Part shown: piece after piece, positions 1 through 12,988 of the stretch
How the letters are laid out: every line of letters starts with the position of its first letter
Numbering within the stretch: the first letter of the stretch is position 1
Assembly: GCF_003987395.1 (NCBI RefSeq)
Contig: NZ_PIPT01000009.1
Span: 1-64,000, forward strand
From: Pseudidiomarina aquimaris
GTDB taxonomy: Bacteria; Pseudomonadota; Gammaproteobacteria; Enterobacterales; Alteromonadaceae
Length of the DNA: 64,000 nucleotides
Direction of reading: 5' to 3'
Made by a program: the position numbers and the translations under genes
Notes under the pieces: generated by a model
What the model was told of the DNA's origin: nothing
Seen by the model: the letters and a program-made list of their open reading frames with translations, nothing else
Database searches by the model: none

Positions 1-42
1 ATCTTTTGCCAAATCTAGTCCGATTCTGGTTACAATACTCAC
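1..42 (-). CDS. IS110-family transposase, N-terminal fragment (cut by window edge)
   Basis: Reading the minus strand from a GTG at 42 gives 14 codons, VSIVTRIGLDLAKD, before the window ends. The 'IGLDLAK' string is the usual start of IS110-family DEDD transposases, in which the Asp is the first catalytic acid. A good ribosome binding site (GGAGG, 55-51) lies 8 nt upstream of the GTG. Only the N-terminus is visible, so whether the gene is intact and which subgroup it belongs to (IS110 or IS1111) cannot be decided. The element appears to lie just outside the IS3-family element. Confidence 0.6.
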   Translation of the reverse strand, partial: MSIVTRIGLDLAKD

Positions 43-46
43 CTGT

Positions 47-115
47 GTCTCCTCCAGCATGTAAATGATCACGTATCATTTTGGCACATTGCGATGCCGT
101 ATTGTTGGAGGAGAC
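47..115. repeat. 13-bp inverted repeat upstream of the IS110-type transposase
   Basis: GTCTCCTCCAGCA (47-59) and TGTTGGAGGAGAC (103-115) are inverted copies with a single G/T difference, separated by 43 bp. The inner copy contains the transposase ribosome binding site. It may be a terminal or subterminal repeat of an IS1111-type end, or two abutted element ends. The other end of the element is outside the window. Confidence 0.5.
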
Positions 116-201
116 CATTACATCGGGTGACGTCTCCCCCAAGAATAGAACCATGACATCGATGAGATTTCCATTAAAATGGGTCAAGTGGAGATCTCAA
201 C

Positions 202-465
202 ATGAAAAAACGTTACAGCGAAGAACAAATTATCAAGGCCATCAAAGAGCATGAGGCCGGAGCCAAGGTTGAAGATATTTGCCGTCGCCTGGGGATATCA
301 AACGGGACTTTCTATAACTGGCGCAGTAAATACGCGGGTATGGAAGTCAACGAAGCGAAGCGGTTGCGCGAGCTGGAAGCTGAGAACACCAAGCTGAAGA
401 AGCTCCTCGCGGAAAAAATGCTTGAGACGGAAGCCTTGAAGGACGTCGTCTCAAAAAAGTGGTAA
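202..465 (+). CDS. IS3-family transposase OrfA
   Basis: This 87-aa protein provides the DNA-binding part of the IS3-family transposase. It has an N-terminal helix-turn-helix ('CRRLGISNGTFYNWRSKY', about residues 28-45) followed by a leucine-zipper-like helix rich in Leu, Lys and Glu (about 55-83). The sequence type matches OrfA of the IS407 group. The stop codon overlaps the start of orfB, and the OrfAB fusion is expected from a -1 frameshift on A AAA AAG at 453-459. OrfA alone usually acts as a regulator of transposition. Confidence 0.93.
   Translation: MKKRYSEEQIIKAIKEHEAGAKVEDICRRLGISNGTFYNWRSKYAGMEVNEAKRLRELEAENTKLKKLLAEKMLETEALKDVVSKKW
453..459 (+). other. Programmed -1 ribosomal frameshift heptamer A_AAA_AAG
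   Basis: The heptamer AAAAAAG is in the orfA frame as A-AAA-AAG, six bases before the orfA stop codon. After slipping back one base, translation continues in the orfB frame (GTG GTA AAG). This is the usual way IS3 elements make the OrfAB transposase. No downstream stimulatory hairpin was verified. Confidence 0.8.
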
Positions 466-1277
466 AGCCCGCCAGCAAAAAGCGTGTGGTTACGCACTTA
501 GTAACCACCTTTAGGCTTAGTGAGCGCCTTGCGTGCAAGTTGGTCGGGCTGAGTCGAACCGCTTATCGATATCAGCCTAAAAAGCGCCAAGATGAGCCTG
601 TTACGGCTCGTTTAAAGGAGCTAGCAGTCGAGTATCCGCGTTACGGATATTTGATGCTACACGGTCTTCTGAAGCGCGAAGGTTTAGTTAAAAATAAGAA
701 GCGGACGTACCGTTTATACACGGAGCAAGGGCTTCAGGTTCGCACTAAAAAGCGTAAAAAACTAACGCGACCACGCGTTGTGATGGACGCCCCAACCGCT
801 GTGAATCAGCGTTGGTCGATGGACTTTGTCTCCGACCAGTTAGCCAGCGGGCGTCGTTTTCGGGTCTTAAATATTGTTGATGACTTTAGTCGAGAAGTCG
901 TTGGCCAGCTGGTTTCAGTGTCGATATCAGGTCAGCAAGTCGCGCGATTTTTGTCACAAATAATTGAAATTCGCGCCCGGCCAGATTCGATTGTTTGCGA
1001 CAACGGTACCGAATTTACCAGTAAGGCGATGTTCTTCTGGAGCAAAACCACAGGTGTTCGTCTGAGCTTCATTCAGCCAGGCAAACCAACACAAAATGCG
1101 TTTGTGGAGAGCCTGAACGGTAAGTTTAGAAACGAATGTCTGAATCAGCACTGGTTCAGAACACTGGATGAAGCAAGGTACGATATTGAGCAGTGGCAGC
1201 GTCATTACAACGAAGAGCGACCGCACAGTTCACTGAATTATTTACCGCCAGCTGAGTACGCAAAACAGGTGGCATAA
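459..1277 (+). CDS. IS3-family transposase OrfB (DDE integrase domain)
   Basis: This 272-aa protein is the catalytic half of the transposase and has an rve-type RNase H fold. An HTH_21-like segment (about residues 45-85) is followed by the DDE core: Asp in 'RWSMDFVSD', Asp in 'IVCDNGTEF' and Glu in 'FVESLNGKFRNECL'. The C-terminal 'HYNEERPHSSL' motif is typical. The reading frame is intact, so the element could be active. It is probably made mainly as the OrfAB frameshift product. Confidence 0.95.
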   Translation: MVKPASKKRVVTHLVTTFRLSERLACKLVGLSRTAYRYQPKKRQDEPVTARLKELAVEYPRYGYLMLHGLLKREGLVKNKKRTYRLYTEQGLQVRTKKRKKLTRPRVVMDAPTAVNQRWSMDFVSDQLASGRRFRVLNIVDDFSREVVGQLVSVSISGQQVARFLSQIIEIRARPDSIVCDNGTEFTSKAMFFWSKTTGVRLSFIQPGKPTQNAFVESLNGKFRNECLNQHWFRTLDEARYDIEQWQRHYNEERPHSSLNYLPPAEYAKQVA

Positions 1278-1331
1278 AAACTGAAATCTCATTGAAAATA
1301 TGGTGTTACTTCAGGGGAAAGGTCAGTGTCT

Positions 1332-1350
1332 ATTCGATGTTTTGGATCTG
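1332..1350 (+). repeat. Left island att-like direct repeat
   Basis: attcgatgttttggatctg differs by one base (T/C at the eleventh position) from 11258-11276, where the same bases encode the last residues of yicC. Duplication of a gene's 3' end around about 10 kb of AT-rich foreign genes is what tyrosine-recombinase integration leaves. The IS3 element ends only 6 bp to its left. Confidence 0.75.
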
Positions 1351-1467
1351 AATGGATGATGTTGATATTGTTTTGTTTAAAAACAAATGGTTGCACAATT
1401 CAAGAGTGGCGATTTTTGCATTTAGGATCCATTTTTGGATCCAGTTGGTCTGTCGTTTAGGTCACTT

Positions 1468-3534
1468 TTATGGGGCTTTAGTTTCGGTATATATATTTTT
1501 TTCTTCTTCCAAGCCAAATACTTCTAGAAACTTCTGTTTAGCGTTTTCTAAATATTTACCCTGCTTCTCGCCATAATCGCCGCTATACCTGCCTGACTTG
1601 GGAATTAACTTCCAGCCCTTTTCAGTTTTTGAGATCTCCCCCGAAATTCTTGCTGATTTGAATGCCGCGATCGTCGGATGTCCTTTACCGTCAATTTCCT
1701 TACCAAGATGCAAAGCACCATCTAAGCCGATAACCCATATGTATGGATCATCAAGTTGTGCTTCGGGCAATTTGTCAGAAATACTAGCGCTGATTCGGCC
1801 ATAAAAGGTTTGTGGCGTCTGATTATTTAAATCACCATCCGATAATTCATGTTGTTTGACTAGGTTTGGAGCTCGTAACTCACCAAACTGTTCGTCCAGA
1901 TAACTCCAAAGATCGTCTCGAGAGTCGGTAAGGTGCTTGATAACCGAATGATAAAAATGCTCAGAAGTATCCGATACCGGCTCCGAATATTCATTAAGGT
2001 CTTTCATGGAATCTTTGAGAAGGTATTCCCACTTTTCACTCCGAAAGACGACGTGTTTCACGGCGTCACCTTGAGGAATATCAGTTGCATCAAAGGCAAT
2101 TTCGAATGCTGTCGCTTCTTTTTCAACATAGAATGACGCTAACCATACATATTTGGGCGTATTCGTTGTTAGAATTTTATAACGATGTAACACGTCTGTC
2201 GCTTGGGCAACGCGAGAGCGAAAATCAGTTAAGCCCACTAACTCGATATCATAATTAACTTGTGTTAATTCTAATTCTTTGGAGTTTACCGCCAGCTCTT
2301 TGAAGTATCTCGCCAACTGTTCGACAACTAGCTCACATGTATTGGAAATATAAAGGCTTTGAATCCGAACTTTAGGATGAGTTACCAGCATCAGGTTATC
2401 AGGTACGATAAACTGTCTTGGTTTTTCATCCCAATCATTCTTTGAATCTTCTGTATCACGTTTTTCTTGAAAAAAAATTGCCCAATCAACGCCCTGCCTG
2501 CCAGAAGCATCAGTAACTTTAAGTTCTGTTAAATAACTAGAAATGTTACGGATCAAAGTTCGTGCGTAAGGGCCAAATCTATCATCGTGAACATAAAGAG
2601 CTTTGTTATCGGGGTGCTCCTTGTATCCTAAGACAGTGACAGCATGATTTCCCTCGTAAATTGCTTCACCGTCTTCAATCTTGTAGACGGCTCCGCCGAG
2701 GATTAACGGGATTTTACTCTTGATATGATACCGGACCGTATCAAAGAACGCTGACTCGGAAGAGTCTTTCTTTAAATCAACTTGGTGAGTTCTAAAACCG
2801 TATACATCGAACGCTCGCATTATCTGCTTTATATTTAATCCTCCATTGGGGAAGCTGTTCGACGAGTTTTCAATGTGGTTAATAGCGGCCAATGTTATAC
2901 GACTGGCTGATGGCGTTTCTGGTAGTCGATAAGATTGCTTCTGAGCATGCATCAGAGACCATATCGCAGTAGTTGCGCACGCTGATACAACTTTATCCTG
3001 CTCTTGAAATGCTACCGAGTTGACAGTCAACTTCATGCCAAATAAATTCACAGTATATTCATTGGCAATAACTTTTTTGGTTTTATTGGTTGCAAGCCAA
3101 GGATAAAGTTTAAGGCAAGATTTCCCGATGAAAGTTCTTGGAATCGGCTTAATAACAATAAATCCAAGATATCTCTTTTGAAGCTCCGCTTCTAACTGTA
3201 AAGGGCCCGCAGTCAAACCTTCGCGAATTTGCTCATGACTTATCTGAAATGTGTCGTCACCACCGTCATCAAAAAAGTGAAGGCGGGCGCATCGCTCACC
3301 ATAACGACTGAAACAGCGCACATAATACTGAGAATAATCTTCAAGGTAGTCGCGATCAACGTAATCAGTCTCGAGCAAAATAGTTCTAGCCTTAAGCTCG
3401 TTTAAATAGCTATACGCAAAATTTATTTGGGGTTTCTGAAAAATATCAGGAAATCCAGTCCCAAATCGCTCACGAATAATATTGCTCAGAGTTGGCTTGT
3501 CGAATTTGCAGATTAAGAATGACGCATGAACCAT
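1468..3534 (-). CDS. Papain-like (C39-like) cysteine peptidase-domain protein, 688 aa
   Basis: I do not recognise a named family. The middle of the protein looks like a papain-fold/C39-like peptidase: Gln179 and Cys186 in 'QEQDKVVSACATTA' (oxyanion Gln plus nucleophile), His297 in 'GNHAVTVLGY' and Asp317/Asp318 in 'YVHDDRFGPYA'. Residues 1-170 are of unknown fold. The C-terminal part (about 590-670) holds 'HPTIAAFKSARISGEI' and 'KSGRYSGDYG', resembling a small domain with an AGE..SGxY pattern seen in some effector-type proteins. No signal peptide or membrane segment is seen, so it is probably cytoplasmic. It lies downstream of a 55-aa gene with a strong promoter and next to a type III R-M system. 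The role is unknown; a defence or toxin function is inferred from context only. Confidence 0.8.
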   Translation of the reverse strand: MVHASFLICKFDKPTLSNIIRERFGTGFPDIFQKPQINFAYSYLNELKARTILLETDYVDRDYLEDYSQYYVRCFSRYGERCARLHFFDDGGDDTFQISHEQIREGLTAGPLQLEAELQKRYLGFIVIKPIPRTFIGKSCLKLYPWLATNKTKKVIANEYTVNLFGMKLTVNSVAFQEQDKVVSACATTAIWSLMHAQKQSYRLPETPSASRITLAAINHIENSSNSFPNGGLNIKQIMRAFDVYGFRTHQVDLKKDSSESAFFDTVRYHIKSKIPLILGGAVYKIEDGEAIYEGNHAVTVLGYKEHPDNKALYVHDDRFGPYARTLIRNISSYLTELKVTDASGRQGVDWAIFFQEKRDTEDSKNDWDEKPRQFIVPDNLMLVTHPKVRIQSLYISNTCELVVEQLARYFKELAVNSKELELTQVNYDIELVGLTDFRSRVAQATDVLHRYKILTTNTPKYVWLASFYVEKEATAFEIAFDATDIPQGDAVKHVVFRSEKWEYLLKDSMKDLNEYSEPVSDTSEHFYHSVIKHLTDSRDDLWSYLDEQFGELRAPNLVKQHELSDGDLNNQTPQTFYGRISASISDKLPEAQLDDPYIWVIGLDGALHLGKEIDGKGHPTIAAFKSARISGEISKTEKGWKLIPKSGRYSGDYGEKQGKYLENAKQKFLEVFGLEEEKNIYTETKAP

Positions 3535-3547
3535 TTTTATTAGTCCC

Positions 3548-3576
3548 TTAAAAGAAAAGGCAGCTATAAGCTGCCT
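3548..3576 (-). terminator. Hairpin plus T-tract between the 55-aa gene and the peptidase gene
   Basis: On the minus strand AGGCAGC-TTATA-GCTGCCT (3576-3558) is followed by TTTTCTTTTA. This is a typical rho-independent terminator shape, just after the 55-aa gene and about 14 bp before the peptidase ATG. It would make peptidase expression partial, or it may be an attenuator. The peptidase ribosome binding site (AAGGGA) lies just after the T-tract. Confidence 0.65.
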
Positions 3577-3598
3577 CTCCTAATATACTTTTTCTCAG

Positions 3599-3766
3599 CT
3601 ACAGATTATAGCTTCTCGCATAAAAACCTTCAGAAGGAGCTAGCTTGCGAGATTCTTCAGCAAACGCTTTCTCACGCTCTTTCAGACGCTCTTTGAACCC
3701 TTCGGCTGCTCTCTTTGAAGCGTTTGTATCACGCTTTGATAGCTCGAACAGTTTATCGATGTCCAT
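3599..3766 (-). CDS. 55-aa charged protein upstream of the peptidase
   Basis: The ATG at 3766 opens 55 codons ending in TAG, giving a protein that starts MDIDKLFELSKRD and ends GFYARSYNL. It is highly charged (many Lys, Arg and Glu) and probably helical between residues 5 and 42. A well-formed sigma70 promoter lies 32 bp upstream, an AAGGA-like site precedes the ATG, and a terminator hairpin follows, so it looks like a genuine gene. It is co-oriented with the cysteine peptidase and could be its inhibitor, substrate or partner. That is inference, and no family was recognised. Confidence 0.6.
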   Translation of the reverse strand: MDIDKLFELSKRDTNASKRAAEGFKERLKEREKAFAEESRKLAPSEGFYARSYNL

Positions 3767-3797
3767 GATTTAGTCCTTGAGTAAATTCAGCGCGCGC

Positions 3798-3825
3798 ATT
3801 ATACGCACTTTAAAGGGGATTTCAA
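3798..3825 (-). promoter_or_regulatory. Sigma70 promoter of the 55-aa gene/peptidase unit
   Basis: On the minus strand TTGAAA (3825-3820) and TATAAT (3803-3798) are separated by 16 bp. The -10 is a perfect consensus match. The expected start site is about 25 bp before the ATG at 3766. Confidence 0.7.
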
Positions 3826-3957
3826 GCAAATGAGCCGAATCCCTTGGTTCTTGACAATACATTAATTGTCTAGTACGCGCTCAACTTAGCACTCAGATCT
3901 CTCGAAAACAACAAAAATCAACTCTTTCGACCATAAAATACTCACTGGTCCGACGAC

Positions 3958-4143
3958 TCAAGGAGTAAAGCTATCATAACGCCGCGATAGCCCCTGCAAA
4001 AGTTTAAGCCATTTCTGAAGTGTGGAGGCACGTCGCGTTGCTGTATCCTCGCTTAAGCCACGCGCACATTGGTTTATAAAGTCAGCTGCTGATGCGCCAT
4101 CAAGTTCGCTGATAGACTCGACTCCAGCCCACTGTGTAATCCC
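3958..4143 (-). pseudogene. Orphan C-terminal protein fragment (no start codon)
   Basis: The minus strand has an open stretch from 4143 to a TGA at 3958-3960 that reads like real protein (GITQWAGVESISELDG and onward to LSRRYDSFTP). It contains a helical 'ADFINQCARGLSEDTATRRA' segment that looks like the C-terminal DNA-binding-like tail of a larger protein. It has no credible start codon and is out of frame with res, which ends just upstream. It is best read as the remnant of a deleted gene, plausibly from the same defence cluster. No family name is claimed. Confidence 0.5.
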
Positions 4144-4183
4144 CTTTTTCCTGCCATAAAAAAGCCTTATGGTTACAATTTCC

Positions 4184-7096
4184 CTAACTCACTGCTTGCT
4201 TCCTAATGAGTTCTACAATTTGATCATCAGCAAACTGAGTCTTGAACTCGACTTTTACATCTTTGCTGATCTGATTGAACAGCTCCTGAGCATGCCTGAT
4301 TTTACGCTTTTCTTCATCTCGCAAGCTGTCGTTACTATCCACATTCTTGGTTTCGATAATAAAATTAAGATAATCGCCTTCCGTCGTTTTCACAACATAC
4401 GCGAAATCAGGCGAATATGTATAGCCACCAGCCACTGGTATCTTGATTGAATTTTTGGGTATTTTTGTGAACACCACCACAGAAGTGATTTCACCTTCTG
4501 TTATATTTAGTCGTTCTAGCTCGGAATCATAAAAGACCTCTTCAAATAAATACGAATCTAAAGGTGGCCGCGTTTCGTCACAATGCATGCCTAAGTCGCT
4601 AGACAAAACATCCTCCAGCGGCTTACTCTCCTCGTCGGTAAACTTTGTCGGATGAACTTTGTTGGAAATAAGGTTGTAACCCAACTCAAACTTATTAAAC
4701 GAATTGTGTAGCAGATATTTACTGAAGCCGGACTTGATCTTGCGAATAGTCTGGATATTCATGTACTCAGTGATATCGATGGTAGACTTGACACCACAAA
4801 AGGCTCTATGAAGGGTCGACCGTTTTATAAAAACTTCCTGAGTTAGCTTATTCAAAAATTCAAGATACGTCATTGTGCTAAATTTAGTAAAGTCCTCATC
4901 GTCCCCAAAGCTTGTTTTATACATCGCTGTATCGTCATGAATGTAAAACTTTTCAATCCGAGTCAGGACTCCAGTTTTCTTAAATTTTTCAGACTCCGTT
5001 AACAAGAAGTTTTTAAACAATGTTAAAAGTTCACTTTCGTCCTCTATCTTGTATTCAAGCACTGCTTTTTGATTAATAATTTCCCATAGCTGGCTCAACT
5101 CCCTAAATTTACCTACTCTCATTTTGGTGCGCTTTTTCCGATCGTCTGCTCTTTTTATCTTGTTAGGTTTAACGCCTACTGGGAATGCCTGCGGAAACCT
5201 TTCTTTAAGACATCGGTACGCATCTGAATCCACGAAATTCTCGTTCTTATCAATAATCCCCTTACTTAGTAACTCCATAAGTAGATCTATTGCAGATAGG
5301 TCAGGATACTTGCCAAGTATTTTATCCTTTAATTCTTGAGTCAACTTACTCGGGATGGTCTCCTGAAACGAACTTTCATTTACCTCTTTAACTAGTGAAT
5401 CAACAAAATCTTTCTCTGTGAAGTCGACATAGTAATTCAGCGTGAATGTGTGGTCTTTGACTCGGCACATATACTCATTGACTGGCAACCGAAGTCCTCG
5501 TCCGACTTCTTGAAGTTTAGATGTGGTGCTTCCGCTAGACCGCAACTTACATATCTGAAACACGTTCGGATTATCCCAGCCTTCACGCAGAGTCCACTTT
5601 GAGAAAATAAACCTTCTTGGATTATTTAACGACAACAACGATTCCTTGTCGTGTAATATCTCATTGATTTCTTTCTCGATCTTCTCATCTTTATCGCTAT
5701 TATCCTTTGAAAAGTAACCGCCGTGAACGCAGGAAACATCGGCAATAGTTTGCTCGAGATAAGCTTTATAGAAAGTATCTGTCTCTGTCTTCAACAATTG
5801 TTTAGCTTCGAATACCACCCACTCTTCAAACTTCTGCTTAAGACTTCCTGAGATCTCTTTACCATCACGATAGCCCTCGATATCGTCAATAAAAAATAAA
5901 GTAAGGGGCTTTATGCGCGGCTTCTGCGTCAGAAAATCCCGCTCTAGTTTAAAATGCTCCTTGATTGCTCTACGCATCATATTGTCTTGCAGCGTTTCGG
6001 CATAGGAATAAGGATTAATTGAGCTGCCAACCTTAAGCTCGATTCCGTTACTTAAAACAACTGTAGTTTTATTTAACGCATCAATCGAAAGATCTTGAAT
6101 TGCGCTATGAGTCTTAGATAGTGACTCACCTTTTAGAAGTCTAAATCGACTTTTAGAGTCGTTTTCATTTAGCTCAAATGTTGCCTCTGACCCGTCTACT
6201 CTTATTAACTTTAAGCTCGAATCATCATCCCCGATAACATCTTCAATATATGCATCAATTCCCTTAACGAGATCATTATTAAATGCATCAACGGCTGTAA
6301 GTCGATAGACTAAGTTTTTATAATCGTTATTAAAAGTTGCACCGTAGCGAATGATATACTGAGCGCTAAATCGCTCAATATTTTTCCAAGTTTCTTTCCC
6401 AGAGGGGAACTTATGCGGTTCATCAATAATTATAAACGGCTTAATAGCACTTATTGCCTTGAACGGGTTATCAAATTGATTATTGAAAATTCCAACATCA
6501 TACGTTTCGTTGAGCGATGGCGAATTTATCATGCCTGAATTAATTACAAGAACATGAATATACTTTTTATTAAAGTTGCTAACTTCCACAAAGTCATGAA
6601 TCGCTTGTGGCATGAAAGTCTTCGTATTTTTTTTAGACTTCTTCTGACTCTCTACAACATAAACTTTAATCTCACGTTCTTCGCTGCGAAAATGCTCTTT
6701 CAGTGCATCACTTTTGAGAAAGTTAACAGTGCCTGCTTTAATAGACAACGTTGGAACCACAACAATGAATTTGCTTAAACCAAAAATTTTGTTCAACTCA
6801 AACATTGTTTTGGTATAGGTATAAGTTTTGCCTGTGCCAGTCTCCATAGAGACATCAATAATGTTGCTTTCCGCATCATAGTGCTGCTGGCTATGTTCTA
6901 TTTTATTATGCTCTTGTACAATCTTAATATTTGAATAGTATTGGGCATCTGTTATTGCAATCTCTGGGTTTGCAAGTAACCGCTTTGCTGCATCTGAATT
7001 TAGATGAGCCTCAGCTCCTGATAATACACTTAGAACCGCACTCACTCCGGCCTGCTGGTGCGGTAGGTTTCTTTCGAAAGTAAATCCATGTGACAT
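4184..7096 (-). CDS. res: Type III restriction endonuclease, Res subunit
   Basis: This 970-aa protein is the restriction and translocation subunit of a type III R-M system. It has superfamily 2 helicase motifs: Walker A 'METGTGKT' (84-91), motif II 'IIDEPHKF' (DEPH, 225-228) and motif VI 'QEVGRGLRLP'. The C-terminal nuclease has the PD-(D/E)XK pattern, with Asp897 in 'YSPDF' and Glu915-Lys917 in 'IIETK'. The reading frame is intact and of normal family length. It starts one base after the mod stop codon, so the two are co-transcribed. With Mod it should cut unmodified DNA bearing two inversely oriented recognition sites. Confidence 0.95.
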   Translation of the reverse strand: MSHGFTFERNLPHQQAGVSAVLSVLSGAEAHLNSDAAKRLLANPEIAITDAQYYSNIKIVQEHNKIEHSQQHYDAESNIIDVSMETGTGKTYTYTKTMFELNKIFGLSKFIVVVPTLSIKAGTVNFLKSDALKEHFRSEEREIKVYVVESQKKSKKNTKTFMPQAIHDFVEVSNFNKKYIHVLVINSGMINSPSLNETYDVGIFNNQFDNPFKAISAIKPFIIIDEPHKFPSGKETWKNIERFSAQYIIRYGATFNNDYKNLVYRLTAVDAFNNDLVKGIDAYIEDVIGDDDSSLKLIRVDGSEATFELNENDSKSRFRLLKGESLSKTHSAIQDLSIDALNKTTVVLSNGIELKVGSSINPYSYAETLQDNMMRRAIKEHFKLERDFLTQKPRIKPLTLFFIDDIEGYRDGKEISGSLKQKFEEWVVFEAKQLLKTETDTFYKAYLEQTIADVSCVHGGYFSKDNSDKDEKIEKEINEILHDKESLLSLNNPRRFIFSKWTLREGWDNPNVFQICKLRSSGSTTSKLQEVGRGLRLPVNEYMCRVKDHTFTLNYYVDFTEKDFVDSLVKEVNESSFQETIPSKLTQELKDKILGKYPDLSAIDLLMELLSKGIIDKNENFVDSDAYRCLKERFPQAFPVGVKPNKIKRADDRKKRTKMRVGKFRELSQLWEIINQKAVLEYKIEDESELLTLFKNFLLTESEKFKKTGVLTRIEKFYIHDDTAMYKTSFGDDEDFTKFSTMTYLEFLNKLTQEVFIKRSTLHRAFCGVKSTIDITEYMNIQTIRKIKSGFSKYLLHNSFNKFELGYNLISNKVHPTKFTDEESKPLEDVLSSDLGMHCDETRPPLDSYLFEEVFYDSELERLNITEGEITSVVVFTKIPKNSIKIPVAGGYTYSPDFAYVVKTTEGDYLNFIIETKNVDSNDSLRDEEKRKIRHAQELFNQISKDVKVEFKTQFADDQIVELIRKQAVS

Positions 7097-7097
7097 A

Positions 7098-9131
7098 TTA
7101 GTTTCTCACCACCAACTCTAACTCAAGAGACTTTTTATTGGCATAACTCTTCAACGCCTCATTAACCTCCATTAGTCTTGCGCTTTCAAAATTGTTGCCG
7201 AAGACAACAATTTTTGTTGGAGCGAAACTCTTATCAAAGTCTAGCTTTTGTAGTAATTCCTTTAGTGAGTTACGGGTGAAGCCAGGGGTTATAAGATACA
7301 AAATACCACCACACAAGTTCGCGATATAACCAGCTAAGTCGACATCACTTACGCGCTCGTTTAAAAAGTTTCCATCATACAAACACCAAGTAGTAAGCAG
7401 AGTTTTGAATTCATCGTCACTCAGCACTACATCGTCAAAAAAACTCAAATTTGAAAGGTTTGGTGTAACATCATCTTTGATGCGGAAGTCGTTGGTTGTC
7501 TCAAAGATCTTGAAGCCAAGGTCTCCAGCATAAGCTGGATATTGCACCTTTAATTGCTCAGAAGATCTGATAATTCGAGCTTTAGTAATCTCAAATATTG
7601 TCTTATATCCATCTTTATATGCTTGCTTTTTTTTGTCCGTTTTTTCTGGTAGCTGGATACAAACATATTTTCTCTCTACACCGTCCTCAGCATTTAGCAG
7701 AAGCACTGCGTGAGCCGTCGTACCTGAACCAGCGAAAAAGTCCAAGAAAATATCGCCATCCTTAGCTTCTATAGACCCGAGCAATGTTCTTATTAAACTA
7801 GTTGGCTTTGGATAGGAAAAATAACCCTTTGCTCCAAAGATTTTCTCGACTTCTACGCCACCATCACTTTTCGTAGAAATAATTGAGCGTAGTAGAAATT
7901 CTTCCACCTCATCCAGAAACTTAATTGAACTTGGTTGCGTTCTTTCATTTTGCGCGAACCAAATACTGCCGCAAATAACACTACCATCATGTAATTCTTG
8001 TATATCAGTATAGTCTCCATCAACGATCATGGCCGCTTCTTCGAACGTTGAACGCTTCCAACGCCAACCGCGGTCAGGAATTTTCACTGGTTGATTGGTG
8101 ATTGGGTGTAAAACTTCATATTTCGGCCCAAATGTTTCAGCATTTGGCCAGCTCATATTAATTTTTCCCCAAGGGCGATAATCTCGGCTTAATCCGTTAT
8201 AAAGCGTAATACCACGATCATACCCATTCATTTTATAGAATTTTTTTAAGCTCTTTTCTGCCTTATCGATAGGTGTCTTAGATTTTTTTAACTTCTCCAC
8301 GAATTCAAATACATCATCAATTCCCTCTTTACGCATTAAGAACTCTTTACTAACCTCATGGCTTTTCGCGTAAACAAGAATGTACTCATGAATATTCCCG
8401 ATACCCTTATCATTTTTTGGAATACGTTTGTTCCAAACAATATTCTCAACGAAATTGGCCTCTCCAAAAATCTCATCACATATAACTTTCAATTGATTTA
8501 ATTCATTTTCGTCAATCGATATAAAAATTACACCATCATGCCTGAGTAACTCTCGAGCAATGTAGAGCCGCGGGTACATGAAAGTTAGCCAAGCGCTGTG
8601 GCTATTAGAGCCTTTACTGGTGAACTCAACGATCCGCTTAGCTTCTTCAGTGTCTATGCCTGCCAATTCGCTTAACTGGTCTGATGTGAATTTTTTTTCA
8701 TCTGTATACGTGAAACCATCTTTACCGGTGTTATATGGCGGATCGATATAAATCATTTTCACTTTCTCTGCATATGCGTTCACCATATGCTTTAGGACTT
8801 CGAGGTTATCACCTTTGATCAGAAGGTTTTGGCTAAACTTATTTTGCGGTTGTTCATTATGAGCTGTATCTCCTCGTAACATTGTTTGAGGAGGTAGATT
8901 GGTCAATAATCGTGCGTAAGATTTTCCTAACCAGTTAAGTGAATATGTCTCTTTTGTTACTTCTACTCCTTCAGCCCCTAACATTTCTGACAGACGTTCT
9001 TGTATAAATTTTCCATCGCGATCAAAACACTGAGGAAAGTGTCTTTTTAGAGTCGATAATTGCTTACTATTTGCAGTTTCTTGATTAGTAAAAAGGGTTT
9101 CTTCTTCCATTCTCATAAGCTCACTGTTCAA
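7098..9131 (-). CDS. mod: Type III DNA methyltransferase, Mod subunit
   Basis: This 677-aa adenine-N6 DNA methyltransferase of the beta class supplies sequence specificity for the R-M system. The catalytic 'DPPYNTG' (motif IV, 130-136) precedes the SAM-binding 'FFAGSGTTAH' (motif I, 465-474), as expected for this class. The segment between about residues 230 and 410 is the likely target recognition domain. Length and intactness suggest an active enzyme. Res follows with a single intervening base. No homopolymer or short tandem repeat typical of phase-variable mod genes was seen. Confidence 0.95.
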   Translation of the reverse strand: MNSELMRMEEETLFTNQETANSKQLSTLKRHFPQCFDRDGKFIQERLSEMLGAEGVEVTKETYSLNWLGKSYARLLTNLPPQTMLRGDTAHNEQPQNKFSQNLLIKGDNLEVLKHMVNAYAEKVKMIYIDPPYNTGKDGFTYTDEKKFTSDQLSELAGIDTEEAKRIVEFTSKGSNSHSAWLTFMYPRLYIARELLRHDGVIFISIDENELNQLKVICDEIFGEANFVENIVWNKRIPKNDKGIGNIHEYILVYAKSHEVSKEFLMRKEGIDDVFEFVEKLKKSKTPIDKAEKSLKKFYKMNGYDRGITLYNGLSRDYRPWGKINMSWPNAETFGPKYEVLHPITNQPVKIPDRGWRWKRSTFEEAAMIVDGDYTDIQELHDGSVICGSIWFAQNERTQPSSIKFLDEVEEFLLRSIISTKSDGGVEVEKIFGAKGYFSYPKPTSLIRTLLGSIEAKDGDIFLDFFAGSGTTAHAVLLLNAEDGVERKYVCIQLPEKTDKKKQAYKDGYKTIFEITKARIIRSSEQLKVQYPAYAGDLGFKIFETTNDFRIKDDVTPNLSNLSFFDDVVLSDDEFKTLLTTWCLYDGNFLNERVSDVDLAGYIANLCGGILYLITPGFTRNSLKELLQKLDFDKSFAPTKIVVFGNNFESARLMEVNEALKSYANKKSLELELVVRN

Positions 9132-9162
9132 AGTTTTTTGTTCTAATTATTGTATGATCAAT

Positions 9163-9438
9163 TTAGTCAATTAATTCTATTGAAACCGATTTGATACCAA
9201 TCCGTTTCAATTCAGCGATTGCGCCATCGGAACTTTTAAAGACTCTAGCCTCGTATGGCTGTCTGGAACTGCTCAGTACCAAAGGTTTGTCATTCCATTC
9301 CGTTTCATCAACGTCGAAAGCGACGATGTAATTACCTTTGGTGCCTATCAGCTGCGCAGATTTGATTTGTCCGCTCTCTACTCGTACCTTAGCCATTGAG
9401 CTAAGTATGCAGTTTCCACCATTGATACCCGAAATCAT
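9163..9438 (-). CDS. Small unknown protein upstream of mod (91 aa)
   Basis: The preferred start is the ATG at 9438, which has a GAGAG site 5-10 bases upstream; a GTG at 9450 or an ATG at 9396 are alternatives. The sequence (MAKVRVESGQIKSAQLIG in its middle and KRIGIKSVSIELID at the end) looks like a small beta-rich protein. It has the same strand and close spacing (31 bp) as mod, so it probably leads the mod-res operon. It faintly resembles small partition-associated or ParC-like plasmid proteins, which I would not rely on. A palindrome lies just upstream and could be an operator. Confidence 0.6.
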   Translation of the reverse strand: MISGINGGNCILSSMAKVRVESGQIKSAQLIGTKGNYIVAFDVDETEWNDKPLVLSSSRQPYEARVFKSSDGAIAELKRIGIKSVSIELID

Positions 9439-9471
9439 ACTGTCTCTCACGATATTTAATAATGTTACGAT

Positions 9472-9486
9472 ATCACATCTTGTGAT
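9472..9486. promoter_or_regulatory. Palindromic operator candidate upstream of the mod-res operon
   Basis: ATCACATCTTGTGAT has perfect 6-bp arms (ATCACA/TGTGAT) around a 3-bp centre, and the symmetry extends imperfectly outward. It sits 34 bp upstream of the small gene that precedes mod. The arm order is the reverse of a CRP site, so CRP is not proposed. A controller-type repressor is possible. Confidence 0.4.
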
Positions 9487-9536
9487 AATCAGATAACCTC
9501 AAATTCAGTAAGCAATTAGTTAGATATCTACCTATC

Positions 9537-9595
9537 CTACCCCTCCCACGCTCATGGAGTCAGCATCTCTATTGCCGTCCAGTTGGGAGGGGTAG
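9537..9595. repeat. Perfect 12-bp inverted repeat with 35-bp spacer
   Basis: CTACCCCTCCCA (9537-9548) and TGGGAGGGGTAG (9584-9595) are perfect inverted copies in the non-coding stretch between the R-M genes and the 69-aa gene. Such a structure could be a replication or recombination site or a folded RNA. Nothing in the sequence decides between these. Confidence 0.55.
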
Positions 9596-9605
9596 TTCCT
9601 AACGC

Positions 9606-9637
9606 AAAAAGCACCCTCCCCATCGGAAGAGTGCTTT
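9606..9637 (-). terminator. Terminator-like hairpin downstream of the 69-aa gene
   Basis: On the minus strand AAAGCAC (9637-9631) pairs with GTGCTTT (9614-9608) and runs directly into TTTTT. The loop is 16 nt, longer than usual. It lies 39 bp past the stop of the 69-aa gene. Confidence 0.5.
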
Positions 9638-9675
9638 GTTAGTGGCCTTGGGTAAGGTGGGAAAGGTGGGTAAGG

Positions 9676-9885
9676 TTATTCAACAACCTCAAATGCGATT
9701 GGCATGGTGAATTTCTCCCGCTGGCTTGGGTCACAGCCTTGCACCCAGTCCGATTCATCAAAGTCGTCTCGCATATCGCGTTCACGATCGGCTGCAAACC
9801 TTGCCTCGACCTCTTCACGGGTTTGGCCCGTCAGTCTTAAGTATTTTTCGATGTACTCTTCTGACATTTGTAAAACGTGCCACAT
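9676..9885 (-). CDS. Hypothetical acidic protein, 69 aa
   Basis: This 69-aa acidic protein starts MWHVLQMSEEYIEKYL and has a charged middle (EEVEARFAADRERDMRDD). A GGAGAA-type ribosome binding site precedes the ATG, and a terminator-like hairpin follows. It has no known motif. Its position between the R-M operon and the primase remnant suggests it is an accessory gene of the island's replication or control region. Confidence 0.5.
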   Translation of the reverse strand: MWHVLQMSEEYIEKYLRLTGQTREEVEARFAADRERDMRDDFDESDWVQGCDPSQREKFTMPIAFEVVE

Positions 9886-10043
9886 GTTCGTTCTCCTTCT
9901 TTGCGTATACGTTCACGAGCACCAACGCTTAGGAGTATTGTTATCGTTTGGAGGACTCAGAAAAAACGCGTTACCTCTAGCGATGTAGCGTTGGGGATAT
10001 TGGTGTTCCAGCTACATCATTATCAATAACGCGCACTAGTCAA

Positions 10044-10886
10044 CTAGTCGAAGAGGTCAGGGGGTTCAGCACCGATAAGTCCAGCGAATCGCTCGCGCAT
10101 ACCATCAACGCTACCAAATTCAAAATACCGGCCACCTCGATCTGACCGGCCATGAACTTGTTCTGCGATCTCTTTGAAAAGTTTGCCCACGGAGCTGCTG
10201 GCGCTTCCATAACTCACTTCATGATTATGGCTCTCACACCAGTGCAAAAAGTTGTTGATGGCATCGGTCGACAAGATTCGTGCTCTACCTGCAAAAGGCG
10301 CCTCGCTGCTTAGGTTCTGATACGCATACTGGTATATCAATGGCATGGCTTGCAGCTTTTGCTCCATCAGTGCCGATGTGGTCGGTGCTTTGTATGGGTT
10401 GAACTCGCTAATATCGAGCTTTAACAAGTAATCCATCAGAAACGACGTTCCGCCATTTTCTAACCACTGGTGTAGCTTACTGAAATAGCGCTGGTCTTGA
10501 GCGTATTCAGCCGATGGCTCAAGTACCAAGTAACGCCGTTCTTTTAGGCCAGCTTTCAGTACAAAGTCGCGGTTACTGGCAAATATCAGCCGCGCATAGT
10601 TGGGTATCGCTATCGGTTCGAGTCCTTTGCGTTCCAATTGCACAATTGGTTCGCTGATGAGCGCCTTGAGTTTGTCGGCCACTTGGCTCGCTGAGAGATC
10701 CACTTCATCAGCAAATATCAGCAGCTTATTGGCGATGACGCTGTTGAACTGTCCGGTAATGTGATGATGCCCGTTTATATGGGCTCCCTGAGCGCCTACC
10801 ATCGCCAGCAAAGGCTTCACCATGATTTGACAGGTGCACGATGTTTTGAAACTAAACGTTAAAAGGTGGACTGGTATCGAACTCAT
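10044..10886 (-). CDS. 5'-truncated phage/plasmid-type primase-helicase (DUF5906/D5-like C-terminal part)
   Basis: Residues from about 22 onward match the C-terminal half of primase/helicases of satellites and plasmids: 'HINGHHHITGQFNSVIANKLLIFADEVDLS' covers the Walker B region (split here: LLIFADEVD), followed by 'ARLIFASNRDFV' and the 'ERRYLVLEPS' sensor region. The Walker A segment and the primase domain that should precede it are missing. The first 20 residues are unrelated, and no other frame restores them. It is therefore a truncated remnant and should not be an active helicase. It points to a phage-satellite or integrative-element origin for the island. Confidence 0.6.
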   Translation of the reverse strand: MSSIPVHLLTFSFKTSCTCQIMVKPLLAMVGAQGAHINGHHHITGQFNSVIANKLLIFADEVDLSASQVADKLKALISEPIVQLERKGLEPIAIPNYARLIFASNRDFVLKAGLKERRYLVLEPSAEYAQDQRYFSKLHQWLENGGTSFLMDYLLKLDISEFNPYKAPTTSALMEQKLQAMPLIYQYAYQNLSSEAPFAGRARILSTDAINNFLHWCESHNHEVSYGSASSSVGKLFKEIAEQVHGRSDRGGRYFEFGSVDGMRERFAGLIGAEPPDLFD

Positions 10887-10963
10887 TTCTCGTCATATAA
10901 CGAACTAACTGAACTTTTCTTTCATCGCCTGACTCATATAAGTAGCAATATAAGGAGACTGAT

Positions 10964-11164
10964 ATGGCTAGACGGAAGAAACCCAAACTAGGTAGGGCAG
11001 CGCGGAAGAAGTCTAAAAGAGCGGCGCGCAAAGGTATAATGCCGAGCTTACTTTCTAGGAAAAAAAGACCAAAAAAGGAAAAGCCTCTGAATCGAGGAGC
11101 TTGTGGCTTTATCGAAGGATGTAGGGTTCCTCAGTCAAACATTCGGTGGGCTACCACTAAATAA
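10964..11164 (+). CDS. Small Lys/Arg-rich protein, 66 aa
   Basis: The protein starts MARRKKPKLGRAARKKSK and is extremely basic in its first 45 residues, with two Cys in a 'GACGFIEGCR' segment near the end. A strong AAGGAG site lies 8 bases before the ATG. It is the gene nearest the right island boundary and the only plus-strand gene of the island. A nucleic-acid-binding role is a guess from charge alone. Confidence 0.4.
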   Translation: MARRKKPKLGRAARKKSKRAARKGIMPSLLSRKKRPKKEKPLNRGACGFIEGCRVPQSNIRWATTK

Positions 11165-11194
11165 CTTCTTAATCTGCGGGGCTTGTGAGTTCGA

Positions 11195-11213
11195 CCCGCA
11201 CTAGAAGTGCGGG
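11195..11213. other. GC-rich hairpin at the island's right end
   Basis: CCCGCAC-TAGAA-GTGCGGG is a perfect 7-bp stem with a 5-nt loop between the 66-aa gene and the yicC stop codon. It has no T-tract on either strand, so termination would be weak. It may be an attP-arm or integrase-related structure. Confidence 0.4.
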
Positions 11214-11255
11214 CTACCTGCGGACCGGTTTAAAGGTTTGTGTCGACGTAGCACA

Positions 11256-12119
11256 TCATTCGATGTTCTGGATCTGCTCGCGCATCTGCTCAATTAGAAC
11301 CTTCAACTCCACCGCGGCGTTAGTAATGTCCGTGTTGATGGACTTCGAACCAAGGGTGTTCGCTTCGCGGTTGAATTCTTGCATCATGAAGTCGAGGCGA
11401 CGGCCGCAGGCTCCGCCTTTGCGCAGGATCTTGCGGGTTTCGACGACATGGGTGTCGAGGCGGTCGAGTTCTTCGGCGACGTCGGTTTTTTGCGCCAGCA
11501 TGACCATTTCAGCTTCAAGGCGTTGCGGGTCGAGCTCGACTTTGGCGTCTTCGAGGCGGGTGCGTAGGCGCTCACGTTGCCATTCGAGTACTTCTGGCAT
11601 GCGCTTGCGTACGACCGATACTTGTTCGGATACGCCTTCCAAACGTTCTTCAATCAAGCGCTCAAGGGCCTTCCCTTCACTCTGACGGTTGCCGATAAAC
11701 TCGGTTACCGCAGCATCAAAGGCGGCAACCACGTCGTTTTGCATGGCATCCATATCCGTTTCGTCTTGCGCCACCACGCCCGGCCAGCGCAGCACATCAA
11801 TTGGGTTCAACTGCGCAGAAGCGCTCTGGTTAGCAATCCAATTCGCACTTGAGATCACGCTTTTCGCCAACTCTTCGTTCAACTGTAAGGCACCTTCGGC
11901 TTGCTCGTTGAAGCTCACACGCAGATTGGACTCGACTTTGCCGCGCTGCAGTTGCTTGCGTAATTTTTCGCGCAGCATGTTCTCCATGCCACGGAACTGT
12001 TCGGGCATACGGAAAAACGTTTCCAAAAAGCGTTGGTTTACCGAACGGAGTTCCCACGTCACGGTGCCCCAATCGGCTTTGTGTTCGTGGCGGGCGTAGC
12101 CGGTCATACTTTGAATCAT
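11256..12119 (-). CDS. yicC: YicC/YloC family endoribonuclease
   Basis: This 287-aa protein begins with the family hallmark MIQSMTGYAR and ends in the conserved 'DITNAAVELKVLIEQMREQIQNIE'. YicC-family proteins are oligomeric endoribonucleases implicated in sRNA and mRNA turnover. Length and ends are normal, so island insertion at its 3' end restored the reading frame: the att repeat supplies the last codons and the stop codon. It is divergent from rph, as in E. coli, but here a toxin-antitoxin pair lies between them. Confidence 0.95.
   Translation of the reverse strand: MIQSMTGYARHEHKADWGTVTWELRSVNQRFLETFFRMPEQFRGMENMLREKLRKQLQRGKVESNLRVSFNEQAEGALQLNEELAKSVISSANWIANQSASAQLNPIDVLRWPGVVAQDETDMDAMQNDVVAAFDAAVTEFIGNRQSEGKALERLIEERLEGVSEQVSVVRKRMPEVLEWQRERLRTRLEDAKVELDPQRLEAEMVMLAQKTDVAEELDRLDTHVVETRKILRKGGACGRRLDFMMQEFNREANTLGSKSINTDITNAAVELKVLIEQMREQIQNIE
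11258..11276 (+). repeat. Right island att-like repeat inside the yicC 3' end
   Basis: attcgatgttctggatctg encodes, on the minus strand, the final QIQNIE residues of YicC and is matched 18/19 by 1332-1350. It marks the core-side edge of the island. Confidence 0.75.
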
Positions 12120-12289: not shown

Positions 12290-12640
12290 ATGGATGTGGA
12301 TTATACTATTGAAGCGCTGCTGGATTTAGATGGGGCAGTGATTTACCAAGAGCTTGGCTACTGGATTGTTATCGAGGCACGAACAGTTAAACCGAGTATT
12401 CGCGTTCCTCATGGCATCAAATATTCACTTACGCTCCACGACAAGTCAGGAACAAGAATCCTTGGCATGGATAACGCCCATCCGATTAAAAAAGCAACTG
12501 CGTATGGGAAAGCTCCTAAAAATAGTGACCACATTCATACAATTAATGGAAGCATCATCCCTTATGAATTTATCAATGCTGCAAAGTTACTCGAAGACTT
12601 CTTCGATTTGGCTGATGCGTTTATGAACGAGGTACATTAA
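12290..12640 (+). CDS. tumE: TumE-type toxin (DUF6516 family)
   Basis: This 116-aa protein has the DUF6516/TumE-like layout: an N-terminal 'LLDLDGAVIYQELGYWIVIEAR' region (DUF6516 start), a 'GIKYSLTLHDKSGTRILGMDNAH' middle segment and a helical C-terminus. TumE-family proteins are toxins of type II toxin-antitoxin modules. Its stop codon is immediately followed by the ATG of a winged-helix protein of the TumA type, with no spacing, which supports a toxin-antitoxin pair. The molecular target of the toxin is not evident from the sequence. It sits between yicC and rph, normally a short intergenic gap, so it was probably acquired. Confidence 0.75.
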   Translation: MDVDYTIEALLDLDGAVIYQELGYWIVIEARTVKPSIRVPHGIKYSLTLHDKSGTRILGMDNAHPIKKATAYGKAPKNSDHIHTINGSIIPYEFINAAKLLEDFFDLADAFMNEVH

Positions 12641-12988
12641 ATGTCCGTCATGCATATAGGTGTAAAACCACAGGCTGAAATTCGCGCTAGACTCATTGCG
12701 ATCGCCAAGGGTGAAGTAAAACCCGAGAATAACGAGCCACGAGTTTGGTTTCCCTCGATTCGCTCTCTCGCAGAAATCTTGTCGGACCAAAATCGTGATC
12801 TGCTAAAAATGATCGCGGAGAACCAGCCCCAGTCATTAAAGGAGCTGGCTGCGCTATCGGGTCGAGCACCAAGCAACCTTTCACGCTCGCTAAAAACCAT
12901 GTCGCATTATGGTTTGGTGAAAATGGAAAAGCATGAAAAGTCTGTACGACCAATTGCGCTCGCGACAGAATTTCACATTCACATCTGA
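12641..12988 (+). CDS. tumA: TumA-type antitoxin, winged-helix DNA-binding protein
   Basis: This 115-aa protein has a C-terminal winged helix-turn-helix ('SLKELAALSGRAPSNLSRSL' followed by 'LKTMSHYGLVKMEK'). It is of the MarR/HVO_A0114-like type that accompanies TumE toxins. It starts directly after the toxin stop codon, so translation is coupled. The toxin-first order is usual for this family. The antitoxin probably represses the pair from the region upstream of 12290. Confidence 0.75.
   Translation: MSVMHIGVKPQAEIRARLIAIAKGEVKPENNEPRVWFPSIRSLAEILSDQNRDLLKMIAENQPQSLKELAALSGRAPSNLSRSLKTMSHYGLVKMEKHEKSVRPIALATEFHIHI

What the first reader, a model, noticed from the sequence alone, without database searches (positions are those of the whole stretch)
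1332..11276. Island inserted in the yicC 3' end, bounded by 19-bp repeats
The last codons of yicC (11258-11276) are repeated 18/19 at 1332-1350, enclosing AT-rich defence and satellite-type genes. yicC is a known attachment site for SXT-mobilised and related islands in Vibrio and Shewanella. This gives exact boundaries to the accessory region.
Basis: partly seen in the sequence, partly recalled or inferred. Interest (0 to 1): 0.7.

Follow-up and report, generated by a model that had tools for sequence, protein, structure and literature searches.

The report
Stranded defence island at yicC end
A ten-kilobase block of probable anti-phage genes sits at the end of the bacterial gene yicC, a landing site already known for mobile islands; it appears to have lost the enzyme that moved it, and it carries a widespread two-gene protease module that we could not match to any described system.

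Summary
The 19-bp repeats are real (18/19) and are the only two places in the 2.8-Mb assembly at up to 3 mismatches. They lie at a genuine integration hotspot: 7 of 20 congener stretches read downstream of yicC hold a second copy of the site, and one (G003) is an island fitting exactly between two copies when set against empty-site relatives. Nine distal ends compared carry a 12-bp-period direct repeat 61-75 bp before the core (8 of 9 at >=7/8; 3.3% of random segments), which I read as integrase arm sites. The window's island holds an intact type III R-M system, a peptidase pair and a primase fragment; no integrase homologue or excisionase was found. Best reading: an integrase-less (CIME-like) relative of known yicC islands, its far flank buried under IS3 and IS110 copies. 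SXT mobilisation is not supported. The unexpected part is cargo at 1468-3766: a papain-fold peptidase without a Pfam, NCBIfam, PADLOC or PHROG family, with a small partner whose C-terminal tail is often conserved, in many phyla and in a minority of loci beside multi-ubiquitin/E1 operons. The island is a new member of a known kind; the pair may be a new defence module.

The parts
1..127 (.). End of an IS110-family insertion sequence (contig edge); same 127 bp at the starts of C21 and C12 and the end of C5, and inside C1
   Evidence: transposase of the complete copy in L096 has IS110 Pfam domains
128..1325 (+). IS3-family insertion sequence (orfA 202-465, orfB 459-1277)
1332..1350 (.). Distal attachment core (18/19 copy of the yicC 3' end)
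1332..1448 (-). Conserved distal end block shared with G024, G011 and G012 (79-82% identity)
1425..1443 (-). Direct repeat TGGATCC-N5-TGGATCC (12-bp period), putative integrase arm sites
1468..3534 (-). 688-aa papain-fold (C39-like) cysteine peptidase, no family model
3599..3766 (-). 55-aa partner protein ending in ...ARSYNL, 64 nt upstream of the peptidase gene
4184..7096 (-). Type III restriction endonuclease Res (970 aa)
7098..9131 (-). Type III methyltransferase Mod (677 aa, EcoP15I C-terminal domain)
9163..9450 (-). 95-aa ORF, unknown (only a sub-threshold ParC match)
9676..9885 (-). 69-aa ORF, unknown
10044..10886 (-). Primase (DUF5906) C-terminal fragment; homology to G024 begins at 10823, after the Walker A motif that G024 keeps
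10964..11164 (+). 66-aa basic ORF, unknown
11195..11217 (-). REP-like palindrome, one of 21 places in the genome at up to 3 mismatches
11258..11276 (.). Proximal attachment core within the yicC 3' end
11256..12119 (-). yicC (endoribonuclease YicC/YloC family), intact

Best explanation
An island entered the 3' end of yicC by tyrosine-integrase recombination at a 19-bp core that re-creates the last codons of yicC, leaving a core copy at each end and arm-type binding sites about 70 bp inside the distal end. It delivered defence cargo: a type III R-M system and a peptidase/small-protein pair. The recombination and replication part has since been lost (no integrase homologue or excisionase found; primase cut off before its Walker A). 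It is now an integrase-less, attachment-flanked (CIME-like) island that would move only if a yicC-specific integrase of matching arm specificity acted in trans, or by homologous recombination between island ends. Shown: the repeats, their uniqueness, hotspot behaviour in congeners, the absence of integrase homologues, the conserved end block. Inferred: past integrase action in this genome, arm-site function, trans-mobility, anti-phage function.
For: Unique 18/19 repeat. Second core copy, same orientation, in 7 of 20 congener stretches. G003: DNA after its distal core matches DNA right after yicC in G019 (96.5% over 171 bp) and G025 (93.3% over 328 bp), occupied against empty. Integrase with Phage_integrase and arm-binding domains beside yicC in G013, G016, G023, in two pieces in G008. 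12-bp-period octamer repeat 61-75 bp before the core at nine distal ends (8 of 9 at >=7/8, G003 6/8; 3.3% of 2700 random 90-bp segments reach 7/8). The window's end block recurs once per genome in 4 of 26 genomes (G000, G024, G011, G012), in the congeners downstream of yicC with different cargo. No integrase homologue in six frames of the window nor in the fetched stretches of G024, G011, G001, G003, G004; one 24%-identity hit in the own genome. Low GC. Contig C17 supports rlmA...IS110-IS3-core-island-yicC.
Against: No empty/occupied strain pair for this very island; its distal flank is IS3 and IS110, and the C17-C22 join runs through a multi-copy IS. About 100 bp beside yicC (spacer plus REP) resemble the yicC-downstream DNA of G002, and around the REP of G007 and G021, where no second core was found, so the proximal junction may have been rewritten or native DNA may persist there. 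The four TGGATCC-type ends share ancestry, so nine ends are not nine independent events; G012's core is degenerate. No integrase linked to the TGGATCC repeat was found, so the cognate enzyme is hypothetical. The integrase screen used a profile of three integrases and could miss an unrelated recombinase.
Confidence: 0.82

Rival explanations
1. The island is a decayed phage satellite (P4/PICI type) whose integrase and replication genes were deleted, rather than a member of the R-M-bearing yicC island group.
For: Primase fragment matching PHROG DNA primase families; shared with G024, where it also lies next to yicC and is likewise short (386 aa).
Against: No other satellite gene recognised; the distal end block is shared with islands of G011 and G012 in which I saw no primase.
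Confidence: 0.25
2. A composite locus: an older insertion at yicC plus later insertions and deletions, so that the two cores do not bound a single element.
For: REP and spacer beside yicC resemble relatives without a second core; IS copies at the distal end; a second integrase fragment behind the distal core of G013 suggests stacking at this site; primase truncated at 10823.
Against: Core pair unique; the distal end block and repeat are in the standard position.
Confidence: 0.3
3. An element mobilised by SXT/R391 or IncC elements (MGI or SGI1-like).
For: Same target gene as MGIVflInd1 and SGI1-like elements (PMC8409611, passages).
Against: No integrase, excisionase or tra gene recognised in the island. 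oriT not tested.
Confidence: 0.05
4. Chance repeat beside a contig edge; no site-specific insertion.
For: Distal flank not visible in this contig.
Against: 0.02 expected in the window, unique in the genome, hotspot in congeners.
Confidence: 0.02

Closest known systems
yicC-specific islands of Shewanella and Pseudoalteromonas (GI21, GISpuPO1, GISspANA3, GIPspSM9913; PMC8978831, passages seen)
   Same: yicC target (GI21 itself sits elsewhere but is homologous), 21-bp attachment sites in GISpuPO1 and GISspANA3, R-M cargo in GI21
   Different: GI21 encodes an integrase and an AlpA-type excisionase and was shown to excise; here neither was found
MGIVflInd1-type and SGI1-like yicC elements (PMC8409611, passages seen)
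   Same: 3' end of yicC as target
   Different: No integrase, RdfM-like protein or tra gene recognised here; oriT not tested
Defence systems carried in yicC islands of Shewanella, Alteromonas and others (PMC12016545, passages seen)
   Same: Defence cargo at yicC
   Different: Different defence genes; integrase status there not checked by me
CIMEs, cis-mobilisable elements (concept recalled, not read here)
   Same: Flanked by attachment sites, no own integrase, cargo only
   Different: Accretion with, or mobilisation by, an integrase-bearing partner not shown
Type III restriction-modification (EcoP15I type)
   Same: Full-length Mod and Res
   Different: None detected; specificity unknown
Papain-fold cysteine peptidases (staphopain, PCAT1/ComA C39 domain, ZUFSP deubiquitinase, TDE0362)
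   Same: Part of the model matches this fold and a Gln-Cys-His-Asp set is conserved
   Different: 688 aa with further domains (TM-score to the whole model only 0.14-0.19 for these hits); small upstream partner; no family model
Bub (bacterial ubiquitination-like) operons (PMC13373217, passages seen)
   Same: A minority of peptidase relatives sit beside Multi_ubiq-ThiF-DUF6527 genes
   Different: The window has none of these genes; that those operons are Bub operons is my inference

Membership tests
yicC-specific integrative island | Direct repeat of the yicC 3' end at both ends | tested here: met
   18/19, unique in genome
yicC-specific integrative island | yicC reading frame preserved | tested here: met
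   287 aa, TIGR00255 1-291 of 291
yicC-specific integrative island | Tyrosine integrase next to yicC | tested here: not met
   six-frame search with a three-integrase profile, none in the window; one 24%-identity hit elsewhere in the genome
yicC-specific integrative island | Excisionase (AlpA or RdfM type) | tested here: not met
   no Pfam, NCBIfam or PHROG match above threshold in the small ORFs scanned; a diverged RdfM could be missed
SXT/R391-mobilised MGI | oriT mimic | not tested
   no reference oriT sequence was fetched
yicC-specific integrative island | Excision giving attP and empty attB | not testable with these tools
   needs reads or PCR
CIME-like element | att-flanked, no own integrase | tested here: met
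CIME-like element | Mobilisation by a partner element | not testable with these tools
   experiment needed
Phage satellite (P4/PICI-like) | Integrase, intact primase and regulators | tested here: not met
   primase fragment without Walker A, no integrase
Type III R-M | Full-length Mod and Res | tested here: met
Papain-like (C39-like) cysteine peptidase | Papain-like fold | tested here: met
   model pLDDT 89.1; 8 Foldseek matches at E<=0.001, all to papain-fold enzymes by my reading of their names
Papain-like (C39-like) cysteine peptidase | Gln-Cys-His-Asp set conserved | tested here: met
   Q179 56/56, C186 55/56, H297 55/56, D317 56/56, D318 56/56; geometry in the model not measured
Papain-like (C39-like) cysteine peptidase | Pfam Peptidase_C39_2 gathering score | tested here: not met
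   18.7 bits against 24
Papain-like (C39-like) cysteine peptidase | Proteolytic activity | not testable with these tools
   assay needed
Multi-ubiquitin conjugation operon | Ubl, E1/ThiF and DUF6527 genes present | tested here: not met
   no such domain among the island proteins scanned; no Multi_ubiq in the own genome

The most novel reading that the evidence does not exclude
The pair at 1468-3766 is an undescribed, mobile anti-phage (or stress-killing) module found across many phyla: a papain-fold peptidase held in check, or primed, by the C-terminal tail ([Y/F/C]-[S/T/N/G]-[L/I/V]-COOH in about half of distinct members) of a small co-encoded protein lying in or near its active-site cleft, and in some hosts recruited beside multi-ubiquitin/E1 conjugation operons.
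Probability: 0.35. Interest if true: 0.75.

Novelty: new member of a known kind. Interest (0 to 1): 0.45.

Why it matters
It shows yicC working as a port for defence cargo in one genus: islands with comparable ends but interchangeable contents (type III R-M plus peptidase here; a DUF499/DUF1156 system, type I R-M, Drt2-type reverse transcriptases or an OLD-TOPRIM/UvrD pair in relatives), and 6 of the 8 with both cores without an integrase homologue. That makes it testable whether integrase-less islands ride on integrases of incoming islands, and what sets arm-site specificity. If the peptidase pair proves to be a defence module, it would add a protease/small-tail-protein system with a possible tie to bacterial ubiquitin-like conjugation.

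Tried and rejected
Chance repeat: rejected. Scattered repeat: rejected. Active satellite: rejected (primase fragment, no integrase). An integrase linked to the TGGATCC repeat: the pattern at <=1 mismatch in 394 genomes of the order gave 5 genomes; besides G000 and G011, three hits (G205, G276, G370) lie inside one ordinary coding gene and are unrelated; that sample did not include G012 or G024. A viral-contig pattern scan found nothing. Using the REP beside yicC to fix the proximal boundary: undecided, REP is dispersed (21 places). Peptidase in phage records: no match. A single-sequence scan of genome contigs found no relative; the alignment scan found 177, of which the best 80 were kept. Peptidase by sequence in the PDB: nothing credible. 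Multi-ubiquitin linkage as the defining context: rejected, a minority only. Clustering of neighbour proteins gave no dominant partner (largest clusters in 7 of 80 loci). The defence tally of neighbours covered 89 of the 143 nearest neighbours listed (loci L122-L173; L140, L146, L150 and L158 left out as near-duplicates), with no matched control, so it is only suggestive. The tail motif was defined after seeing the sequences, so one search is descriptive. Paper searches listed no description of the pair; they cover only the open-licence library.
Full report
WHAT IS THERE. With one degenerate base and up to three mismatches the 19-mer has two places in the window (0.02 expected) and the same two in the whole 22-contig assembly. 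yicC is complete. The enclosed DNA is AT-rich: GC 0.385-0.48 by segment against 0.52. The window begins at a contig end: bases 1-127 are one end of an IS110-family element and 128-1325 an IS3 copy, so the chromosome left of 1332 is not visible in this contig. The conserved neighbour rlmA lies 3.2 kb from the end of contig C17; C17 ends in the other end of the same IS110 element, and parts of its last 3.3 kb match the yicC-rlmA interval of G007 and G021 (about 1.5 kb at 73-76%). C17-IS110-IS3-core-island-yicC is thus the likely order, but the IS is multi-copy, so this is inference.

HOTSPOT. yicC was found in 25 of 26 genomes of the genus, own included. I fetched downstream DNA (up to 20 kb; 2.6 kb for G008 and 4.8 kb for G005 at contig ends) for 20 of the 24 congeners with yicC. 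Seven of the 20 (G013, G016, G024, G011, G001, G003, G004) have a second core copy in the same orientation, 4.7 to 18.1 kb away, at up to 1 substitution from a degenerate core pattern searched at up to 2; the only other hit was a 2-substitution one on the opposite strand in G012. Stretches of G015 and G020 fetched later showed no same-orientation second core at up to 3 substitutions (one opposite-strand hit in G015). For G003 the DNA after the distal core matches the DNA right after yicC in G019 (96.5% over 171 bp) and G025 (93.3% over 328 bp): an occupied/empty pair with a precise junction. In G006 a REP variant lies between yicC and a gene found beyond the islands of G016 and G024.

INTEGRASE AND ARM SITES. 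A tyrosine integrase (Phage_integrase plus Arm-DNA-bind_3) is the first gene after yicC in G013, G016 and G023, and is present in two pieces in G008; a six-frame profile search of the 20 stretches and the window found no other except a fragment behind the distal core of G013. So 6 of the 8 islands with both cores (window, G024, G011, G001, G003, G004) show no integrase of this kind. The Pfam tally over 46 proteins of the five congener islands did not list Phage_integrase among its first 25 of 68 families; families matching one protein were mostly not shown. The own genome has one distant hit to the G013 integrase at 24% identity. Nine distal ends (the eight islands plus G012, whose core is degenerate) carry an octamer repeated with a 12-bp period, ending 61-75 bp before the core: eight at >=7/8, G003 at 6/8; 3.3% of 2700 random 90-bp island segments reach 7/8. 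G024, G001, G012 and G004 also reach 7/8 at one other period. The letters fall into dialects: GTGGTGAC in G013 and G016, TGGTGAG in G001 and (imperfectly) G003, GTGGTGG in G004, TGGATCC in the window, G024, G011 and (one copy altered) G012. I read these as arm-type integrase sites; this is inference. The TGGATCC block (about 116 bp) occurs once each in 4 of 26 genomes; a fifth genome, G016, gave a 27-bp hit at its core. No integrase linked to this dialect was found.

CONTENT. Minus-strand cargo from the yicC side: a primase C-terminal fragment whose homology to G024 (89% over 1135 bp) starts at 10823, after the Walker A motif present in G024; two small unknown ORFs; complete Mod and Res of a type III R-M system; then the small-protein/peptidase pair. 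Islands of relatives hold type I R-M, Drt2-type reverse transcriptase, DUF499/DUF3780/DUF1156/helicase and OLD-TOPRIM/UvrD genes; G012 holds a C5-cytosine methylase and a GmrSD-type gene.

THE PEPTIDASE PAIR. The 688-aa protein reaches no curated cut-off in Pfam (best C39_2, 18.7 against 24 bits) or NCBIfam and has no PADLOC or PHROG match at E<=0.01. A scan of named genomes with an 8-member alignment gave 177 relatives, best 80 kept, from Proteobacteria to Bacteroidota, Cyanobacteria and Planctomycetota; seven viral contigs matched, no phage record, four plasmids, and 5 of 369 sampled genomes of the class, own included. In a 56-member alignment Q179 is 56/56, C186 55/56, H297 55/56, D317 and D318 56/56. 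The AlphaFold model (pLDDT 89.1, pTM 0.87) matches papain-fold enzymes over part of its length: TDE0362, staphopain, phytochelatin synthase, ZUFSP, PCAT1 (E 8e-6 to 3e-3; TM-score to target up to 0.59, to the whole query below 0.2). Of 93 peptidase loci, 90 gave an upstream small ORF by a fixed rule (83 distinct, median 66 aa with first-start ORFs, so true starts may be shorter); 46 of 83 end in [YFC][STNG][LIV] against 1 of 214 distinct small ORFs picked by the same rule upstream of other genes in the same loci; 68 of 83 end in L, I or V against 32 of 214. The motif was chosen after viewing. Seventeen of the 46 are CSL endings from Pseudomonas and Stutzerimonas loci; without them it is 29 of 66. 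The window's partner (ending YNL) fits and is not in that count. Multi_ubiq, ThiF and DUF6527 together lie in the flanks (up to 6 kb a side) of 6 of 80 named loci, and at least one of the three in 9 of 80 (two of these ThiF alone); in 4 of 8 further loci (P. aeruginosa plasmid, Mesorhizobium plasmid, G775, G750); in 0 of 20 control stretches (the Mesorhizobium Multi_ubiq was seen by Pfam, not by my profile). Four of the six are Pseudomonas. Multi_ubiq occurs in 13 of 369 class genomes, and 2 of the 4 other genomes with the peptidase have both side by side. The window's genome has no Multi_ubiq. The staphopain-staphostatin pair (title) is an analogy for a peptidase with a small inhibitor, not a homology claim.

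MECHANISM. Most likely: integrase-mediated entry at the yicC core; delivery of defence cargo; loss of the integrase end; locking-in by insertion sequences. Present function (inferred): restriction by the type III system; a peptidase kept inactive by its small partner until infection or stress.

KNOWN KINDS. In Shewanella, yicC islands with integrase, AlpA-type excisionase, R-M cargo and 21-bp sites were shown to excise (PMC8978831, passages). Defence systems in yicC islands are reported (PMC12016545, passages). SGI1-like yicC elements carry integrase and an RdfM-like protein (PMC8409611, passages). The window island shares target and cargo type but fails the integrase and excisionase tests, so I file it as an integrase-less relative, not as an MGI. 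The CIME concept is recalled. PMC9035990 (passages) mentions Idiomarina islands in another integrase cluster; the host genus of this window was not identified here. Bub operons: passages of PMC13373217 only.

WEAK POINTS. No empty site for this exact island. The proximal ~100 bp (spacer and REP) resemble G002 and, around the REP, G007 and G021, where no second core was found. Ends are not independent samples. Defence function of the pair is guilt by association: the neighbour tally showed type I REase, RmrA, GajB and DRT-helicase models (2 members each) and PbeA (3) among 89 neighbours, 25 of 235 families displayed, without control.

Noticed in passing
window 12290-12988 (+): A TumE-type toxin gene followed by an HTH (HVO_A0114-like) gene, a probable toxin-antitoxin pair, sits between yicC and rph.
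   Followed up: partly
window 11195-11217 and 20 further places in the own genome: REP-like palindrome dispersed in the genome; a copy follows yicC in the window, G007, G021 and G002, and a variant in G006.
   Followed up: partly
L050 2677-12792 (G024): DUF499 ATPase, DUF3780, DUF1156 and PLD/SNF2 helicase genes in the sister island that shares the primase fragment and the distal end block.
   Followed up: partly
L061 2185-9088 (G004) and L060 (G003): Integrase-less yicC islands with a reverse transcriptase (Drt2 models); G004 also has an OLD-TOPRIM ATPase plus UvrD helicase pair, Gabija-like by my reading.
   Followed up: partly
L109, L117, L118, L119, L141, L142, L149, L153, L154, L171: Peptidase pair near Multi_ubiq-ThiF-DUF6527 genes; in some an HTH gene lies between or beside the two blocks.
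   Followed up: partly
L113 and L114 (G775, G750): These peptidases carry long ETE/EAE repeats between the catalytic part and the C-terminal part.
   Followed up: no
L095 346-1662 (own contig C17) and L050 17002-18378 (G024): HipA-type genes lie just beyond the yicC island site on the far side.
   Followed up: no
L047 after 16175 (G013): A second, truncated integrase piece follows the distal core, which suggests stacked islands at this site.
   Followed up: no
L097, L099, L100 (own contigs C5, C21, C12): The IS110-family end breaks several contigs of the assembly.
   Followed up: partly
A2 alignment columns of C186 and H297: One of 56 aligned peptidases has Tyr in place of the catalytic Cys, and one of 56 has Tyr in place of His.
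   Followed up: no
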